Source: an uncultured Haliea sp. (GTDB taxonomy: Bacteria > Pseudomonadota > Gammaproteobacteria > Pseudomonadales > Halieaceae). Taken from it: DNA of 64,000 bases. Made by a program: the position numbers and the translations under genes. The notes under the pieces were generated by a model. The model worked only from the letters and a program-made list of their open reading frames with translations, did not search any database and was not told the origin of the DNA. The stretch spans positions 1 through 64,000 of the forward strand of contig CAJXWP010000002.1 in assembly GCA_913062625.1 (NCBI GenBank), given 5' to 3'. The first letter of the stretch is position 1; the number at the start of each line of letters is the position of its first letter. Positions 1 to 45,420 of this stretch are shown piece after piece.

Positions 1-423
1 CTAACTATGAATACAGCACAGACGGGGTTAACTTCACCCCCTTAAGCCCAGTAAGTAAAGCTAGCCCCATTACAATAACCGGGCTGGAAAGTGGCAAGGA
101 TTATTCGATAACGCTAAAAGCCGTCAATAGCAAAGGTAAAAGCGGTCCTTCCAAGGTCGTAACGTTTACTACTCCTGCCTCTGCCCCAGGCGCACCGACC
201 AGCCTCTCTGCAACGCCAAGCAATGGACAGGCCAAAATCACGTTCACTGCAGGCGCAGACAACGGTGCGAACATTACTAACTATGAATACAGCACAGACG
301 GGGTTAACTTCACCCCCTTAAGCCCAGTAAGTAAAGCTAGCCCCATTACAATATCAGGGCTGCTCAATGGGATGGTGTATTCGATAACGCTAAAAGCCGT
401 CAATAGCAAAGGTAAAAGCGGTG
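1..423 (+). repeat. Near-identical 276-bp tandem FN3-coding repeat
   Basis: Bases 1-79 recur exactly at 277-355, and the block from 102 to about 147 recurs from 378. The period is 276 bp, which is 92 codons, or one FN3 unit. Identity is preserved at DNA level, pointing to recent duplication or ongoing recombination between units. More copies may lie upstream of the window. Confidence 0.9.
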
Positions 424-2192
424 CTTCCAAGGTCGTAAAGGTTACTACCTCTCCGATTCAATTTGATGGTCTGAGCTATAAAGTCATTAAAGTGGGTCAA
501 GTCGCAGTGACGGGTCGGGTAGTAGGTGACGCCAAAACTGCCATCATCATCCCTGCTACTGTTACCGATATCGACAGCGGAATAAAGTACAGCGTCACGA
601 CCATTGAGGAGCGTGCTTTCTACAAGAACGACCTCACCAGCGTGATTATTCCAGACAGCGTGACGACCATTGGGGAAGGTGCTTTCGCAAACAACGCCCT
701 CATCAGCGTGATTATTCCAGACAGCGTGACGACCATTGGGGATAAAGCTTTCGCGAGCAACAACAACGCCTCCGCCACACCACCGTTCGGCGGCCCCACC
801 CTCACCAGCGCCACTTTTTTGGGGAATTTCGGAACATTCAACCTCGGCATGTTTGAAGGAAATGCCAACCTAGCGACCATCACTTATGTTCGAGACGCCA
901 CGGACTGGGATGCCCGAACCTTCACTAACACTGGCCCCACAGGAAAAGTCACCGCGTCCGTAGCAGATTCTGGGCCTAAACCGGAACCTCCTCCCACGTT
1001 CTGCTCGCGTTTAGGGCAGGGGTGCGTTCCCACGGCACCAGCACCAGCACCAGCAACGTTTGACGTTGGTGGCCTCAAGTATTCTGTGATCGACTCGAAT
1101 GTCAAAGTGGTTGGCCAATCAGACAAAAAGCTTGCATCGGACATCGTCATCCCAGAAACAGTCACCAATAACGAAACAGGTAAAGTCTACCGTGTCACTG
1201 CCATAGCGATTAGCGCTTTCGAAGATAACAATCTCAAGAGCGTGACCATCGGAACCAACGTTATCGTTCTTGAAGAGAAAGCGTTCAAAGGCAACAAACT
1301 CGTCAGAGTGCTTATTCCCGGCAGTATCACGACCATTGGGGAAAAGGCATTCCAACAGAACAAGTTTGCCAGCCTAAATATTCCATCCAGCGTTACGACT
1401 ATTGGAGATAACGCTTTTAATGACAACGAACTTACCAGCGTTGCCTTCAAAGGAAGTTATGGCACGTTTAACAGTGACACGATGTTCGCAAAAAATGAGT
1501 CCTTATCCACTATTACCTACTGCACAGGCGCTGCGGGTTGGTCTGAGCAGCCATTTTTTAATGGTCAAGATAGCGTTAAATCGGCTCCGATTAGTTGCCC
1601 AGCTACAGTCAATCTAAGCGGTAAAGTTCAGACTACCTTCTTTTTTCCTGATGGAGGCGCCGAGGTTGTACCGGTTTGCGCAATCGTGCTGGCCAGCGGC
1701 CAGTTCATGTTTAGCTGTGACCCTATTGGACCCTTTTCACTTAATAACTTGCCGCGCGAAGCCGATGGTACTGTTGTTCGTCAAATCTATGCGGATGGCT
1801 TTTTCCCCTCTGTTACGACTCTAGCCGAGTCTGGTGTTGAAACAATCACTATGGAGCGAGCGTTTGATTGTAAAGACTACAACCCGACCTCGAACCCACT
1901 TGAGGTTCCCGCTTCTGCCGGCAAGGTGCAGACGCTATCAGGCAGGGTGTTGTTGCAAGCCACCGACACGCCACTGTGCGCTCTAGTGCTTGCCAATGGT
2001 CAGTATATGTTCTCATGTGGTGATGAAGGCGCGTACTCACTAGAGTTCCCGCTTGATGGCAAAGGACAATACAAGCTGCAAGTATATGCGGATGGTTTTG
2101 CACCGGCCGTGCAGACGTTCAATGAATTCGATAGCCCGTCCGATGTTCGGATGGCGAGGTCTTCAGAGTGTCAGGCTGCACCGCCTCAGTGA
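1..2192 (+). CDS. Secreted FN3 / BspA-type leucine-rich-repeat protein, 5' truncated by window edge
   Basis: The reading frame is open from base 3 to the stop at 2190-2192, so the true start lies outside the window; the ATG at 372 is internal. Order of parts: two fibronectin type III-like units of 92 codons (about 3-450), then BspA/LRR_5-type repeats built on IPDSVTTIG and AF..N.L patterns (about 540-900 and 1200-1500), then two related C-terminal modules (about 1610-1850 and 1925-2180) sharing the patterns LSG.V, PxCAxVLA.GQ.MFSC and YADGF.P. The repeats imply an extracellular or surface adhesive or scaffold role. This architecture is known in large exported proteins of environmental gammaproteobacteria; no catalytic motif is visible. 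A terminator-like hairpin follows at 2225. The binding partner is unknown. Confidence 0.85.
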   Translation, partial: NYEYSTDGVNFTPLSPVSKASPITITGLESGKDYSITLKAVNSKGKSGPSKVVTFTTPASAPGAPTSLSATPSNGQAKITFTAGADNGANITNYEYSTDGVNFTPLSPVSKASPITISGLLNGMVYSITLKAVNSKGKSGASKVVKVTTSPIQFDGLSYKVIKVGQVAVTGRVVGDAKTAIIIPATVTDIDSGIKYSVTTIEERAFYKNDLTSVIIPDSVTTIGEGAFANNALISVIIPDSVTTIGDKAFASNNNASATPPFGGPTLTSATFLGNFGTFNLGMFEGNANLATITYVRDATDWDARTFTNTGPTGKVTASVADSGPKPEPPPTFCSRLGQGCVPTAPAPAPATFDVGGLKYSVIDSNVKVVGQSDKKLASDIVIPETVTNNETGKVYRVTAIAISAFEDNNLKSVTIGTNVIVLEEKAFKGNKLVRVLIPGSITTIGEKAFQQNKFASLNIPSSVTTIGDNAFNDNELTSVAFKGSYGTFNSDTMFAKNESLSTITYCTGAAGWSEQPFFNGQDSVKSAPISCPATVNLSGKVQTTFFFPDGGAEVVPVCAIVLASGQFMFSCDPIGPFSLNNLPREADGTVVRQIYADGFFPSVTTLAESGVETITMERAFDCKDYNPTSNPLEVPASAGKVQTLSGRVLLQATDTPLCALVLANGQYMFSCGDEGAYSLEFPLDGKGQYKLQVYADGFAPAVQTFNEFDSPSDVRMARSSECQAAPPQ
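639..742 (+). repeat. 66-bp direct repeat within the LRR region
   Basis: A 38-base block at 639-676 recurs at 705-742. The 66-bp spacing equals one 22-residue BspA-type leucine-rich repeat. Later repeats (about 1310-1400) are more diverged. Confidence 0.8.
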
Positions 2193-3402: not shown

Positions 3403-3832
3403 ACAAAACGCTCATCGTTAGCCTGTAAAGGCGAGTATTAATAACATAGAGGTCGCGTGGAATAAACGAGCAAAAAACATATCGCGATTTTCAGAGTTTT
3501 CCTGTCAGGATTTGCTTGATCAAGAGTCTCGGCTGGTGCCGAAATCACTGCGAGAAAGTACAGAGACACACCTAAGCTTCGAGCCGTTGTCAGTACCCTG
3601 CAAGGCGCATCTCAGGTCATCACGTGGGCATTTCGTGAATGTATTCAGTCCAGTTATCCGTACCAGTAAGGGAATCTTCTCTCAACAGGCCGCTTGTCTG
3701 TACTACACTGGCAGTAGTCGGATCGCCAACTTCTTTGGTGTCACGTTACCGTACTATGAACCGCCATGAACTTTCGATGGCGAATGGAGCGACTGCTTAT
3801 AGCGGCAGCGAAGCTGCGGAGAGCCACAGGAA
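3403..3832. other. Divergent intergenic region, no gene seen
   Basis: About 430 bases separate the minus-strand SDR gene from the plus-strand lipoprotein gene. Short ORFs here have no recognisable composition or ribosome-binding context. The region should hold promoters for both directions, but I could not pick a convincing -35/-10 pair. Confidence 0.5.
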
Positions 3833-6094
3833 ATGATTCATCGATTGTTGACCGCCGGCTCTTGCTTTGCATTCAGTTTGTCATTCCTGATGGTGGTGGG
3901 GTGCGCTTCGGTCAAGCCGGCAGTGCACAAGGGTGCGCCCCAGACAATTTCGGATCGTGGGGTTCAGGAGCACGGCAAGATTTGGCCCCGCAGTATCGAT
4001 TCTGCCTACATGGGGACGTGGGGGGATAACCGAAACTCCGGCACGACTCTGGTTACGAGTTTCGAGAGACGCAAGCTCGCAGGACAGAGTGAGTACCTAA
4101 GCTGGACACAGCCCAATTCTCCACCCGTTTCGGCCCTGCTGACCAACGGCAGCACCGAGGCGCCGAATGGCCTGATTATTGCGGTGTCCCCTCGGGGTGG
4201 AGGTACCTCGACGGTGGTCGCTCTCGACCCGACCGGGAAGGTTGTGTGGCGAACCGAAGAGTGGACTGGCGAAGACAAAGACGGAGACGGTATTCCCGAT
4301 CGTGCAGGGATGGGCAATGCGGTTGCGTCGAGCGCCGGAATCCAGGCGCCGATGGTGGATGAAGAAGGCGCCCTTTATGTGGGTGACAATTATGGCGTTT
4401 GGAAGTTGGACCAGAATACCGGTGAACGCATCTGGTTTTCGCGCTTCTCGGACTACAGTGGCAACACGCTTGCTTCCAATGATCTGCGACTCCTCAATGC
4501 GGGGTACGACGGGCTGGTGGGAAATGTCTTCTCTTCGGGATGGCATATCTGGCTCGATCGCCGCGATGGCTCTCCGGTCATCGTCAAGGAGCCTGACCCG
4601 TTCTCCGCGAATGATTGCCCCCTGCGCTCACGTCTTTATCTGAGTGTCAGCGGTGGGGAGATGGACAAGTCCGGCGAATTGGATGAACTTGTTTGTCTGG
4701 CCTACGACGCAAACAACACGACGCCACAGCCCAACAATTTGGCTGTCCGTCCTGCCATCCCCGGTGTTTCCGAACATGCCCGCTATATTTTCACGTACGC
4801 GGGACCTGTCGGTAAGCCCGATTCGTCGCGGCTGATCGCCTATGACTTTACCCACAGCGACGAGTCGGGCTGGGGAATCGAGAAGGCCTGGGAGCGTGTG
4901 GTTGCCGGATTGACGGCTGCTTCTCCGACTATGAATCCAGACTATACCGTGGTCAACGGTTCCGATGCCGATGGGAGTGTGAACTTTACCGACGTGGAAA
5001 CCGGGGATTCGCTTCCTAAATTCCCCACCGACTTCAACAGCTTTGGCTCCCCTTTCAATAACATCGATGGCTTGTTCTGTGATGCTTGGTCTCTCACTTG
5101 TATTTCAACAGATGGGGAAATCTCCATTCAGGCCGATCATTCCCGAACGGAAGAAATCGCAGCTCAGGTATTGCCCGAGTTGGATAACCACGCAATCCCT
5201 TTTCTGTGGGGGACAACGCCGGATGCAGACTATATCGGCGGGATGGTTCTCGATCCTGCCCGATGGACGGTCACCGCCAGTATTGGCTACCCGTATTTTC
5301 TGGGCAAGGTTCTGGGAACCTTCACCCGGCTCGGCGGTTTGACCCCGACGGCCATGATTCCCGTCACGTTCGATGCGAAAACGGGCAATTTGATGCCGGG
5401 GCAGATCTTCAGCCCTGAGTTGGCTCGGCCCGGTATTTCGCAGGCGAATGCCATGGTGACCACACACGGTCGCTACGTCGTGCAGAAAGCCGAACTGCTC
5501 ACCTTGTTCTACTACTATCTCTTTCAGGGGAACTATAATTTCTTTAATGCCAACGCTATCTCGCGTGATGATGTGACGGAAGAGGAGATGAAGGAATTGC
5601 GCGAAACGAGTGCGCAGCTCAATTACTTTGGTCTCTTTGGCCCGATCGACGAAGAGGGCATTGTGCCGGCAGCATGGAAAGTTCCGCAGCCCGAAGCGGG
5701 GTTGACCATCTACGAACCAGTATCTTTCCGCGAGAGCGTCCGTAACCAGGTTGAAATGAATCTCGATCTGGTGCGTTTCTCGCGCAAGAACATCTGCCTT
5801 ACGGAAGGGTGCCAATTAGAGGAAGCCGCCGCGCGGCTGGGGTATGCCGCGTGGAATCTCGACAAGGCTGTACCGAAGCAGTTGGCCGAGGCGGTCACTC
5901 GAAGCGAATTGAGCGAGCAAGAGGGCGAGAGTCTGACCGCGGCCGCATCTGTCGCGGAGTCCGAGTGCCGCCGCTCGCGCGGGGGACTGCTGGCCAAACA
6001 ACCGCGACTCCCTGACCGCAATGCAATTCAGGAAGCACAGCGGGCGGCGGCGACCTGCGAAAAACATCTCCAAGCGCTGCTCTTGAAACTATGA
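3833..6094 (+). CDS. Large lipoprotein with PQQ-like beta-propeller features, function unknown
   Basis: A 753-residue protein with a lipoprotein signal peptide: hydrophobic segment then VVGC, giving lipidated Cys24. Repeated segments such as ALDPTGKVVWR, YVGDNYGVWKLDQNTGERIWF and VNFTDVETGD resemble PQQ-type propeller blades (BamB-like). Residues about 147-156 form a DxDGDGxxD calcium-binding-type loop. The C-terminal 130 residues are helical and charged. It therefore probably sits on the periplasmic face of a membrane as a scaffold or ligand binder. The stop codon overlaps the next start (ATGA, 6091-6094), so it is translationally coupled to the PDZ protein. I know no named family with this full arrangement, and the catalytic residues of true quinoprotein dehydrogenases are not evident. 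Confidence 0.75.
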   Translation: MIHRLLTAGSCFAFSLSFLMVVGCASVKPAVHKGAPQTISDRGVQEHGKIWPRSIDSAYMGTWGDNRNSGTTLVTSFERRKLAGQSEYLSWTQPNSPPVSALLTNGSTEAPNGLIIAVSPRGGGTSTVVALDPTGKVVWRTEEWTGEDKDGDGIPDRAGMGNAVASSAGIQAPMVDEEGALYVGDNYGVWKLDQNTGERIWFSRFSDYSGNTLASNDLRLLNAGYDGLVGNVFSSGWHIWLDRRDGSPVIVKEPDPFSANDCPLRSRLYLSVSGGEMDKSGELDELVCLAYDANNTTPQPNNLAVRPAIPGVSEHARYIFTYAGPVGKPDSSRLIAYDFTHSDESGWGIEKAWERVVAGLTAASPTMNPDYTVVNGSDADGSVNFTDVETGDSLPKFPTDFNSFGSPFNNIDGLFCDAWSLTCISTDGEISIQADHSRTEEIAAQVLPELDNHAIPFLWGTTPDADYIGGMVLDPARWTVTASIGYPYFLGKVLGTFTRLGGLTPTAMIPVTFDAKTGNLMPGQIFSPELARPGISQANAMVTTHGRYVVQKAELLTLFYYYLFQGNYNFFNANAISRDDVTEEEMKELRETSAQLNYFGLFGPIDEEGIVPAAWKVPQPEAGLTIYEPVSFRESVRNQVEMNLDLVRFSRKNICLTEGCQLEEAAARLGYAAWNLDKAVPKQLAEAVTRSELSEQEGESLTAAASVAESECRRSRGGLLAKQPRLPDRNAIQEAQRAAATCEKHLQALLLKL

Positions 6095-7521
6095 ACTGTC
6101 GCATCCGGCAAACTCGCCAGTCGAAGATGTTGACCAGAGTTGTGGGCGTTGTTTTGCTGGTCGCGTCGAGTCTTGTGCCCGTTTGGGCTGAGGTCGATGG
6201 GCCCGATGCGTCTGCGGTTGTTGACCTTTCCTCGCGTTGGGTAGCGAGTGTTTCGGAAAAGTCGCCGGAGCTCACGGACCTCGTCACCGAGGATGCGGCC
6301 GCCTATTATGCCAACCTTCGTGATTTGGCTCTACGCGGTTCGATGGGGGCGATTGATGACCTTCACCCGATTGAACAATTGCAGGTCATGTTCCTTCGGC
6401 TCACGGTCCCATCGGATCGTCTGGCGACGCTGTCGGGAAACGAAATTCTCCTGCTTGCCGTACAAGAGGGATGGATCGGTCAGGACCTGCGTCGTAGCGA
6501 CGAGCTTCGTGAGGTTGTCGTCGAAGGCGACACCGCCACTGGGCGCCTGTTCAAATTTGGCCTCGATGATCGCCCTGATCGAGGACGGCAATATTTTTCG
6601 TACGAGAACGGCAGTTGGCGTGTGGAATTGCGCGGCGAGACGGAGCGCCTCGAGAAAGACTTCCGTTCGTTTACCAGGCGCACGGAGTTGTCCGACTCGG
6701 AGGCAGCATTTTTCATTCTGGAGACACGCCTCTTGCGAAAGGTTATACCTGCGGATTTTGTTGCCCCTGAAGCCTCACCCGTCGCGACGGTGCCGGATTT
6801 ACGGTATGTGCCAAGTGCTTCGGGCCTCCCAGACCACGACGCCTCCCAGGACCGAGTCGGCGCGTCACCTGGCAGTGCGCACACACTCATTGCTGTCCGA
6901 GAATCTCCTGATCTCCCGGGGTTCGCCGCGGCAACGATTGCGGATGTCGGGCGATCGCTGCGCTATGTGGTTGTGGTCGGAGACCTTCTGGGGGATGGGG
7001 CGGGCTATCGACTTGAGCGGGTAGCGGGAGATCGCGTCTGGTTGCGGCGCGGAAGCGACCTGGTGGTTCTGGTTCTGGATCCCAACAGCTCACCTCTGGC
7101 TGAACTTCGCACCATTGCCAAGGGGTCGGGTGAGGAGAGTTCGCTTCTGGATCATGCAGAACTTGGCAAGGATCGGTTCGGTATGATGTCCCAGTGGCGT
7201 AATATGGGGTTGCGTGGTCGGCCTCAGTTACTGCAGCAAGGGTCGCTTGTGCCTCAAGTGATCCCTGGTCGGGATGTGATAGGCGGCTTACGTGTGGGCC
7301 GGATTCTTCCCGGTAGCTTCTGGGATCAGATGGGTCTTTCCGAAGGTGACGTCATCGAACAGGTGAACAATAAGAAAATGGATTCGATAATGCGTTGGAG
7401 GGAGTTCATGAATATCGCAGAAAGCGCACAGGAAATATCGCTGGTCGTGGAGCGTGGCGGGGAACAGATTCGGTTGATTATCCGAACCATTCCAACGCAC
7501 AGGGAGGGGGCACGAGCGTGA
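6091..7521 (+). CDS. Exported protein with C-terminal GspC-like PDZ domain
   Basis: A 476-residue protein. An N-terminal hydrophobic segment (LTRVVGVVLLVASSLVPVWA) after a basic start acts as signal peptide or anchor. The middle is unassigned. The last 90 residues (about 390-470) have a PDZ fold pattern: GGLRVGRILPGSFWDQMGL, then EGDVIEQVNN, then a beta-strand pair LVVERGGEQIRLIIR. This resembles the PDZ of type II secretion protein GspC and of HtrA-like proteins, but the Ser-protease domain is absent. It starts inside the stop codon of the lipoprotein gene, implying stoichiometric co-production and probably a shared envelope complex. Its role is inferred from context only. Confidence 0.75.
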   Translation: MNCRIRQTRQSKMLTRVVGVVLLVASSLVPVWAEVDGPDASAVVDLSSRWVASVSEKSPELTDLVTEDAAAYYANLRDLALRGSMGAIDDLHPIEQLQVMFLRLTVPSDRLATLSGNEILLLAVQEGWIGQDLRRSDELREVVVEGDTATGRLFKFGLDDRPDRGRQYFSYENGSWRVELRGETERLEKDFRSFTRRTELSDSEAAFFILETRLLRKVIPADFVAPEASPVATVPDLRYVPSASGLPDHDASQDRVGASPGSAHTLIAVRESPDLPGFAAATIADVGRSLRYVVVVGDLLGDGAGYRLERVAGDRVWLRRGSDLVVLVLDPNSSPLAELRTIAKGSGEESSLLDHAELGKDRFGMMSQWRNMGLRGRPQLLQQGSLVPQVIPGRDVIGGLRVGRILPGSFWDQMGLSEGDVIEQVNNKKMDSIMRWREFMNIAESAQEISLVVERGGEQIRLIIRTIPTHREGARA

Positions 7522-7637
7522 ATAAAAATGCAGCGACCGATGACCCTAATGATAGGAAAAATAAAAGGGCTATCGTGAGTAGGTCTTCTTATGGATACGC
7601 GCCACAAGGCCTGAAAAGAGCGCGAACAGCCGGTTGA
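7518..7637 (+). CDS. Possible 39-residue coupled small ORF
   Basis: A GTG at 7518 overlaps the PDZ gene stop by four bases (GTGA), mirroring the ATGA junction upstream. The frame runs 39 codons to TGA at 7635-7637. The product is basic and polar (KNKR, RSSYGYAP, LKRAR) with no hydrophobic segment. It may be a real coupled micro-protein, the surviving 5' stub of a third operon gene, or chance. No homologous family is recognised. Confidence 0.3.
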   Translation: MNKNAATDDPNDRKNKRAIVSRSSYGYAPQGLKRARTAG

Positions 7638-7825
7638 TCACTGTGAAGTCCTGCCGGCCTCAGTCATCGAACAATTCACATCCGTCTATTGCTGAACTGT
7701 CGAACGCAGGGAGGTGAGCCAGAATTCTATCGATGAGCTCCCGGTCTTCAATACAGGACGTGATGGGTTATAGCACTAACGTGCACTTATTCAAGCATGC
7801 CTTGATGTTTCTAGATTTAGGTCGA

Positions 7826-8353
7826 TCATGAACTGGAATTAGCACGAAGCAGAATCAGCCTGCGGCCGCAGAGGAGCCCGCAGTATGTTGCGGCATACCC
7901 TAATGTCACTGAACCGAGCACATTGATCAGCAGTGCGAGGTGGTTTCCTGACTGCTCCAGATTGAGGCTGATCAGGCTAAACAGGCTAAATGTGGTCATC
8001 CCGCCAAGAATGCCTGTAATGATGAAACCTGCAAACAGTTCGGCGCGAAGGTCTGCCCTGAAATCACGCACCACGGGTTGAGTAGGGTTAGATTCCGGCC
8101 ACCAGCCCCGTTGGGTCAATGGTTTTGAAAGATCAGAGGCCGTTAGCGGGCTATCCAGATCCTTTTTAAGCACCCCTTCCAGAACGAAGAAGACGAACCC
8201 GATTAAAAAACAGCCAGTGATGTTGACGATCATTATTGCCACGTATTCCGGAAGCCCCATAAGTCCATGAAAAAGACTCGCCAAAAGGTGCCGAATGATG
8301 ACCCCGATAGCGCCGCCGAAACCAACGGCAAGTATCATAATGAATAGTCTCAC
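7826..8353 (-). CDS. crcB: CrcB/Fluc fluoride channel subunit 2
   Basis: About 175 residues with four hydrophobic segments. CrcB signatures are visible: GFGGAIGVIIRH near the start, the IVNITGCFLIGF segment, and GILGGMTTFSLFS, the Phe/Thr-lined pore region. CrcB (Fluc) proteins form small dual-topology fluoride exporters. The second segment contains a long polar insert (about residues 60-100), which is unusual. I choose GTG 8353, whose first bases overlap the stop of the upstream crcB copy (GTGA); an in-frame GTG at 8383 would lengthen it by ten residues. It is expected to pair with the neighbouring subunit in the inner membrane. Confidence 0.85.
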   Translation of the reverse strand: MRLFIMILAVGFGGAIGVIIRHLLASLFHGLMGLPEYVAIMIVNITGCFLIGFVFFVLEGVLKKDLDSPLTASDLSKPLTQRGWWPESNPTQPVVRDFRADLRAELFAGFIITGILGGMTTFSLFSLISLNLEQSGNHLALLINVLGSVTLGYAATYCGLLCGRRLILLRANSSS

Positions 8354-8790
8354 GAGGTTGCCGCCAGAGAACCAAGGAACCATCCAAACGTCACACCACC
8401 GTAGGCCAGCAGCGTAGTCCCGAAAATGTTCAGGAGCATCTGTCCTTTGTTGTTAATGCTCAGTAAGAAGTTGTCGAGTGAAAAGCTGCTAAATGTTGTG
8501 AATGCACCACAGAAACCGATGACCAGCAGTGATATGAGGTCGTTAAGGTTCAGTTTGTTGATCGCCTCATCCGTTGGGGTGAGATTCTTAAGATGCAAAT
8601 CCTTTAGATCAATAGATAACCAGGCAACGGCGACACCGATCATGACACTGCCCACGACGTTAATGATGAGAACCGGTATCCAGCCAGGCCAGGATGTGTA
8701 GTTTGCTGCAAGCTTCTGGCTTAGAAACCGAGCAACCGCCCCCAGCGACCCCCCAGTCATTAGTAGTAGCAATGTGAGCAGCATATTCAT
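8350..8790 (-). CDS. crcB: CrcB/Fluc fluoride channel subunit 1
   Basis: A 146-residue, four-helix membrane protein. GGSLGAVARF lies near the N-terminus, INVVGSVMIG in the second helix and GFCGAFTTFSSFS in the third, all diagnostic of CrcB/Fluc fluoride channels that export fluoride passively. It is the first gene of a two-gene unit; the downstream copy begins at its stop codon. Two different CrcB genes side by side imply a heterodimer with fixed opposite topologies, as in Gram-positive pairs. The upstream region does not show the fluoride riboswitch core, so its regulation is unclear. Confidence 0.88.
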   Translation of the reverse strand: MNMLLTLLLLMTGGSLGAVARFLSQKLAANYTSWPGWIPVLIINVVGSVMIGVAVAWLSIDLKDLHLKNLTPTDEAINKLNLNDLISLLVIGFCGAFTTFSSFSLDNFLLSINNKGQMLLNIFGTTLLAYGGVTFGWFLGSLAATS

Positions 8791-9459
8791 TTTTCGCCAG
8801 TAACGCCTAAAGCACGTGTTGCGTTTTTTTGCTTAGGATGAATCATGGTCGCCCGTAGCTATAATGAGTTAATAGCGGTGAAGATAACACAGTCGCCCGT
8901 CCCAGAGGTAGCGCGCAGCCTGAGGGTCCTAGGAGTCTCAACGAATAGGCAGCACCGTCAACAGACTATCACCAGGGTGTGCCATTCGCCTTATGACTAT
9001 TGTATTTGCTGGCAGTTGCACGCTGCAGACATTTTCAATGGGCACTGGTTTGCACGGTCTGAACACTCGGTCAGACAACCATCCTGACACCGTCAAGGAT
9101 AGGGATCTTAGGGCGCACGATTGCAAAACGTTGGTGTGCGATTTCGGCTGTCGCCCTTGTCAGTTGCCGGATAATATTTTGTTTTTACAGGTGTCAACCC
9201 GCGATAATTGAGCACCTCCTAGCCTCAAGCAAGTACTTGAAAAAAGACTAACGTCCGCTCTTATAGTGGGCGAGCTTTGGTATCCGTTATGTTGCGTGTG
9301 TTTATGACGTATAGCCAAAACTGTTGAAAGCCATTACGTTGATCGATCAAACCTCGCAATCCGCTGCGATGCCAATGAACTCGCCTCTGCACAGACTGCC
9401 GCAACCGATTGGCATCGGCTGTTTGCTCATAAAGATGGCGAGCATGATTTAAGAGTGAT
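8791..9459. other. Long intergenic region without a recognised gene
   Basis: About 670 bases upstream of the crcB pair. On the minus strand an imperfect hairpin (CCTAAGC pairing with GCTTTAGG, about 8804-8838) precedes the crcB start, but no fluoride-riboswitch core is present. The remaining short ORFs look random. No repeat or RNA gene was seen. Confidence 0.4.
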
Positions 9460-44966: not shown

Positions 44967-45420
44967 CTAAAAAAGTCTGGATCGGTTTTCTGCGTTCGCC
45001 AGTTCAGCAATGGACGGATGTGAAGTGTTCGAGGACTGAGGCCAGCAAGATTCCACAGTGATAGCCCGGTTTTCCGTGTTCAACCGTGAAAACGCCACCC
45101 GTAATCGCTCTAGACACCAGACTCTGTAGCGCGAAACAGGCAACTGGGTATACACTTGCCCCTGAATAACGACATTAAACCTGTTTTCATTCTTACCATA
45201 ACCACTCGTCAGCATAATCTTCAATCAACAAGCTAATAAAATTTTGCAACGGGTGATCAAGTATTACATTCGGCCCAGTCAGTTCGGATTCAAGAAATTG
45301 TATCATCGGCGTTGTATCCGACATCCAGCGACCATCACTCATTTCAACTACGGGCATTTGCAACGCGCCAGTGTCAAAAAAATTTTTCTGCTGTTTTGGG
45401 ATGGTGCGATCACTTGATAT
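44967..45420 (-). pseudogene. Decayed glutathione S-transferase family gene
   Basis: Reading 45420 to a TAA at 45193-45195 on the minus strand gives GALQMPVVEMSDGRWM, SDTTPMIQFLE and FISLLIEDYADEWLW, a clear GST N-terminal thioredoxin-fold segment including the SDTTPMI glutathione-binding loop. It is preceded directly by an in-frame TAG, so the true N-terminus is lost. After DEWLW the frame stops, where intact relatives continue into the C-terminal domain. A second frame (44967-45224) holds RYRVWCLERLRVAFSRL, which may be a displaced C-terminal piece. Two or more lesions make it non-functional. Confidence 0.6.

What the first reader, a model, noticed from the sequence alone, without database searches (positions are those of the whole stretch)
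3833..7637. Translationally coupled propeller lipoprotein, GspC-type PDZ protein and tiny ORF
Two unrecognised envelope proteins overlap by ATGA, and the PDZ gene then overlaps a 39-codon ORF by GTGA. A PQQ-like propeller lipoprotein with a calcium-loop motif, paired with a GspC-like PDZ lacking the rest of a secretion system, suggests an undescribed envelope complex, perhaps secretion- or scaffold-related. The segment also seems richer in G and C than its neighbours.
Basis: partly seen in the sequence, partly recalled or inferred. Interest (0 to 1): 0.62.

Follow-up and report, generated by a model that had tools for sequence, protein, structure and literature searches.

The report
Mobile lipoprotein and GspC-like gene pair
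Two tightly coupled genes for a lipoprotein and an off-operon relative of the type II secretion protein GspC, found elsewhere only in a few marine Myxococcota, have been acquired intact by an unrelated bacterium, perhaps as a portable add-on to its protein-export machine.

Summary
The overlaps are real: gene 1 (3833-6094, lipoprotein, 753 aa) and gene 2 (6091-7521, 476 aa) share ATGA. The 39-codon ORF is not a gene: most of it lies in a 175-bp host repeat with at least 11 copies in the genome. The pairing is conserved. All 8 complete homologous loci, nearly all in marine Myxococcota MAGs, carry gene 1 then gene 2; 6 keep a 4-nt ATGA/GTGA overlap, and the two gene trees agree. No other genome of the host's family has the pair, so it was acquired horizontally (GC 57-58% against 51%) and is under purifying selection. 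Gene 2 is an orphan GspC paralogue: a GspC HR domain (Z 8.8, 1.9 A to the ETEC GspC of the GspC-GspD crystal) plus a GspC/DegP-type PDZ. These are fused behind a ~220-aa periplasmic domain that also occurs alone. Its closest GspC relatives lie next to gspD in the same Myxococcota. Host and carriers have gspD elsewhere. Best reading: gene 2 docks on the resident T2SS secretin and presents gene 1 or its cargo. This docking is inferred, not shown.

The parts
3833..6094 (+). gene 1: 753-aa lipoprotein, PQQ/BamB-like repeats in the N-terminal half, Ca-loop motif, C-terminal helical domain; 68-76% identical to Myxococcota homologues
6091..7521 (+). gene 2: 476-aa orphan GspC-like protein; signal/anchor, ~220-aa N-domain, HR domain (res 257-330), PDZ (res 384-466)
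6091..6094 (+). ATGA stop/start overlap; 4-nt ATGA/GTGA overlap also in 6 of 8 homologous loci
6862..7080 (+). GspC homology-region (HR) coding part of gene 2 (residues ~258-330)
7240..7488 (+). PDZ coding part of gene 2 (residues ~384-466)
7518..7637 (+). 39-codon ORF; judged not a gene because it runs into repeat DNA from 7552
7552..7726 (.). right flank: copy of a ~175-bp interspersed host repeat
3612..3709 (.). left flank: second host-genus repeat-like element (hits in G119, G131 and own C64)

Best explanation
A two-gene, translationally coupled envelope module acquired from marine Myxococcota or an unsampled relative. Shown: gene 2 is a GspC paralogue (HR + PDZ) behind an extra periplasmic domain, outside any gsp operon, always paired with the gene 1 lipoprotein, in cells that have their own T2SS secretin. 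Inferred: gene 2 is inner-membrane anchored, its HR domain docks on the N0 domain of the resident GspD, and its PDZ and N-domain hold the gene 1 lipoprotein (or its cargo). In this way the lipoprotein is exported to or displayed on the cell surface through the existing T2SS.
For: Pairing in all 8 complete homologous loci, 4-nt overlap in 6. Gene 1 and gene 2 trees agree on the supported branches. HR: best VIA hit of the gene 2 model is 3oss_C, GspC of the ETEC GspC-GspD complex, Z 8.8, 65/65 residues, 1.9 A; profile match to real GspC proteins at 98.8%. Its best local relatives are the gspC genes directly before gspD in the same Myxococcota. PDZ best by Foldseek: EpsC. gspD present in host and in all carriers tested. 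Lipoproteins reaching the surface by T2SS are known (PMC12802150), and GspC-HR/GspD-N0 contact is essential for T2SS (PMC3169554). SNPs against a second assembly: 9 synonymous, 3 not, P = 0.003.
Against: No physical link to the T2SS locus. Scores lie far below the GspC equivalog cut-offs (49.4 vs 150; 17 vs 101.6). HR alone is weak by sequence against PDB (E 0.26), so conservation of the GspD contact residues could not be judged. The gene 2 model is moderate (pLDDT 58.6) and gene 1 has none usable. In donors the neighbours are a regulator and an F420-type oxidoreductase, not secretion genes. T2SS is common in proteobacteria, so co-occurrence with gspD is weak evidence.
Confidence: 0.4

Rival explanations
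1. A T2SS-independent envelope scaffold: the GspC-derived HR-PDZ was recruited to bind the gene 1 lipoprotein or peptidoglycan/outer-membrane partners, and no longer touches GspD.
For: Off-operon position, extra N-domain also found alone in other Myxococcota, HR strongly diverged in sequence; PilP-type HR folds bind other partners.
Against: HR fold retained over its whole length and gene 2 still closest to the resident GspC proteins; all tested carriers have gspD.
Confidence: 0.33
2. An accessory or enzyme pair for a small-molecule pathway: gene 1 is a quinoprotein-like or sensing lipoprotein, gene 2 its periplasmic holder, controlled by a ligand-sensing regulator.
For: In 6 of 8 loci a divergent regulator with a GerE HTH and, in the two scanned, a TetR_C ligand domain sits directly upstream; a TIGR03617 F420-type oxidoreductase lies nearby in 6, one as a fragment.
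Against: Neither neighbour was transferred with the pair; no enzyme family reaches its cut-off for gene 1.
Confidence: 0.18
3. The segment is an assembly chimera, not part of this genome.
For: Flanked on both sides by interspersed repeats, foreign GC, 3.8 kb from the contig end; absent from the rest of the family.
Against: A separate assembly (L024, MAG ANT-64) carries the same 3889 bp at 99.67% with 13 SNPs, including 86 bp of the left host-genus repeat. The flanking repeats belong to this genus.
Confidence: 0.08

Closest known systems
GspC (type II secretion inner-membrane clamp protein; NF041515 GspC_delta, TIGR01713)
   Same: HR domain and C-terminal PDZ in the same order; HR superposes on ETEC GspC at 1.9 A
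   Different: extra ~220-aa domain before HR, not in a gsp operon, far below family cut-offs, coupled to a lipoprotein gene
BamB / PQQ_2 (PF13360)
   Same: PQQ-like repeat segment, lipoprotein
   Different: twice the length, extra C-terminal helical domain, Ca-loop; below the gathering score; no BamB equivalog match
T2SS surface lipoproteins (PulA, InvL)
   Same: lipobox protein in a cell with T2SS; works-like hypothesis only
   Different: no sequence relation tested; dependence on T2SS unknown; has a dedicated GspC-like partner gene

Membership tests
T2SS GspC | HR domain | tested here: met
   VIA Z 8.8 to 3oss_C over 65 residues; hhalign 98.8% to GspC alignment
T2SS GspC | C-terminal PDZ (or coiled coil) | tested here: met
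   PF00595 above cut-off; Foldseek best hit EpsC PDZ
T2SS GspC | gene next to gspD in a gsp operon | tested here: not met
   no gsp gene beside it in the window or donor loci; gspD lies elsewhere
T2SS GspC | score above curated equivalog cut-off | tested here: not met
   49.4 vs 150 bits; 17 vs 101.6 bits
T2SS GspC | HR binds GspD N0 domain | tested here: inconclusive
   HR-only profile too diverged to map the contact residues onto 3oss
BamB | TIGR03300/PF13360 over the cut-off, full propeller | tested here: not met
   15.1 vs 285.2 bits; 25.5 vs 27.6 bits
BamB | eight-bladed propeller fold | tested here: inconclusive
   AF2 model of gene 1 at pLDDT 38
T2SS-exported surface lipoprotein | lipobox signal peptide | tested here: met
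   LMVVGC and a cysteine at this place in all 9 sequences (read by eye)
T2SS-exported surface lipoprotein | GspD-dependent surface location | not testable with these tools
   needs an experiment

The most novel reading that the evidence does not exclude
A portable T2SS plug-in: an orphan GspC variant that docks on whatever secretin the cell has and gives it a new, dedicated lipoprotein client, moving between phyla as a two-gene unit.
Probability: 0.2. Interest if true: 0.72.

Novelty: new variant of a known kind. Interest (0 to 1): 0.45.

Why it matters
GspC is thought to help set which proteins a T2SS exports. A natural GspC paralogue tied to one lipoprotein and moved between phyla would give a direct, testable handle on how T2SS cargo is chosen and how lipoproteins pass through it.

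Tried and rejected
Tiny ORF as a gene: rejected, repeat DNA. Plasmid or viral carriage: no hits in plasmids or viral contigs. Defence system: no PADLOC hit. tRNA or Rfam element as insertion site: none in the window. Empty site: the genus loci with the SDR gene showed no crcB next to it, so no clean pre-insertion site was found. Sequence relatives of gene 1 in PDB: none. Fold of gene 1: model too poor to search. Fold of the gene 2 N-domain: NTF2-like is only an impression from the model; the structure lists are filled by HR and PDZ, and Pfam gave nothing for the standalone forms. No paper on orphan GspC paralogues was found in the held library.

Full report
OBSERVATION. Gene 1 (3833-6094) and gene 2 (6091-7521) overlap by ATGA, and a 39-codon GTG ORF overlaps gene 2 by GTGA. 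The two genes have GC 57-58% and GC3 65 and 61%; the window averages 51.2%. The third ORF enters, at 7552, a ~175-bp interspersed repeat that has at least 11 copies in this genome (82-90% identical) and further copies in other species of the genus. It has no family match, and the sequences after gene 2 in the homologous loci look unrelated. I do not count it as a gene.

RELATIVES. A scan of one genome per species (about 85,000) gave 10 loci. One, L024, a 3889-bp contig filed under an Akkermansiaceae MAG, is 99.67% identical to window 3624-7512 with 13 differences. It is most likely the same organism's DNA put in the wrong bin (inference: it starts inside the left host-genus repeat and ends just before the right one). 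The other nine are 69-81% identical in protein. Seven of them come from Myxococcota or Deltaproteobacteria records, and two from short contigs in Dehalococcoidia and Latescibacterota MAGs, which may be misbinned. Every complete locus (8 of 8) has gene 1 followed by gene 2; six share a 4-nt ATGA/GTGA overlap and two have a start 9-20 nt after the stop (and positions read). Gene 1 is far better conserved (68-76%) than gene 2 (40-50%). In both trees the window row is sister to the same group, with L029, L032 and L033 outside.

DISTRIBUTION. No other genome of the host's family has gene 1 (0 of 139, apart from one short weak PQQ-like match), and none was found by profile in 389 other genomes of its order beyond one weak match. 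In the order of the Myxococcota carriers 6 of 79 genomes have it, one with two loci; no full-length copy turned up elsewhere in 377 genomes of the phylum. Searches of viral contigs and plasmids were empty. With the foreign GC this indicates horizontal acquisition. The neighbouring SDR gene is host-like (about 70% DNA identity across the genus). Twelve coding SNPs between window and L024 are 9 synonymous and 3 not, P = 0.003 against a neutral mix, so the genes seem to be kept by selection.

GENE 2. By sequence, residues 261-462 match GspC_delta at E 5e-13, in all 9 homologues, but far below the equivalog cut-off. Against a GspC-only alignment the profile comparison gives 98.8% over HR and PDZ. 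Among the local GspC proteins, the best scores (about 60 bits) are those lying directly before gspD in the same Myxococcota genomes; the host's own GspC scores 38. The AF2 model (pLDDT 58.6) has an HR-like domain whose best solved match is GspC in the ETEC GspC-GspD complex, Z 8.8, 65 of 65 residues, 1.9 A, and a PDZ closest to EpsC by Foldseek. The N-terminal ~220 residues also occur as separate secreted-looking proteins of 222-254 aa in other genomes of the class; they match no Pfam family. So gene 2 is a fusion of that domain with a GspC HR-PDZ unit. One genome (G566) holds only a PDZ-end fragment without gene 1.

GENE 1. A lipoprotein with a PQQ-like segment (residues 109-248) slightly below the Pfam cut-off in the window, matched in all 9 members, an invariant DxDGDGxxD loop, and a C-terminal helical part that is the only confident piece of the model. 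The propeller is likely but not shown.

CONTEXT. In six of eight donor loci a divergent regulator lies directly upstream (GerE HTH plus a TetR-type ligand domain in the two scanned by Pfam), and a TIGR03617 F420-type oxidoreductase is close by in six, one of them a fragment. Neither came with the pair. The host and all carriers tested have gspD-type secretins elsewhere.

MECHANISM. GspC HR binding to the GspD N0 domain is essential for T2SS (PMC3169554). T2SS can carry lipoproteins to the surface, and GspC PDZ domains are implicated in handling of specific substrates (PMC12802150). From this I infer, without proof, that gene 2 docks on the resident secretin and presents gene 1 or its cargo. 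The main rival is a scaffold that has left T2SS. The contact residues could not be checked because the HR is too diverged to map onto 3oss by sequence.

NOVELTY. Both domain types are known; the fusion, the off-operon pairing with a lipoprotein, its narrow spread and its transfer between phyla were not found described in the held papers. The verdict is a new variant of a known kind, of moderate interest.

Noticed in passing
window 7552-7726; inverted part-copy at 44990-45062: About 175-bp interspersed repeat, at least 11 copies in the genome (contigs C1, C3, C24, C38, C62, C64, C80, C101, C111) and more across the genus; ends in a T-run; nature unknown.
   Followed up: partly
window 9211-9455 and 2210-2437: Two further repeat families shared with other contigs of the genome and genus.
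   Followed up: no
L028 7204-7887(-), L026 7245-7910(-), L032 6031-6714(-): Regulator with a GerE/LuxR-type HTH at the N-terminus and, in L028 and L032, a TetR-type C-terminal ligand domain (L026 not scanned by Pfam): an unusual hybrid, divergent from gene 1.
   Followed up: partly
L134 6177-6860, L135 6550-7242, L137 6884-7585(-), L136 201-866: Standalone secreted-looking proteins homologous to the N-terminal domain of gene 2; no Pfam family.
   Followed up: partly
L031 536-1612: Upstream of a gene 1 copy on a short contig filed under Latescibacterota: a protein with DIDGNGE-type and RTX-like calcium repeats, lower GC; possibly another recipient genome or a chimeric contig.
   Followed up: partly
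window 372-2192: BspA/HupY-like leucine-rich repeat protein whose repeat DNA has many similar copies across the genus.
   Followed up: no
window 7826-8790: Two overlapping crcB-like fluoride channel genes on the minus strand, the first with a long internal insertion.
   Followed up: no
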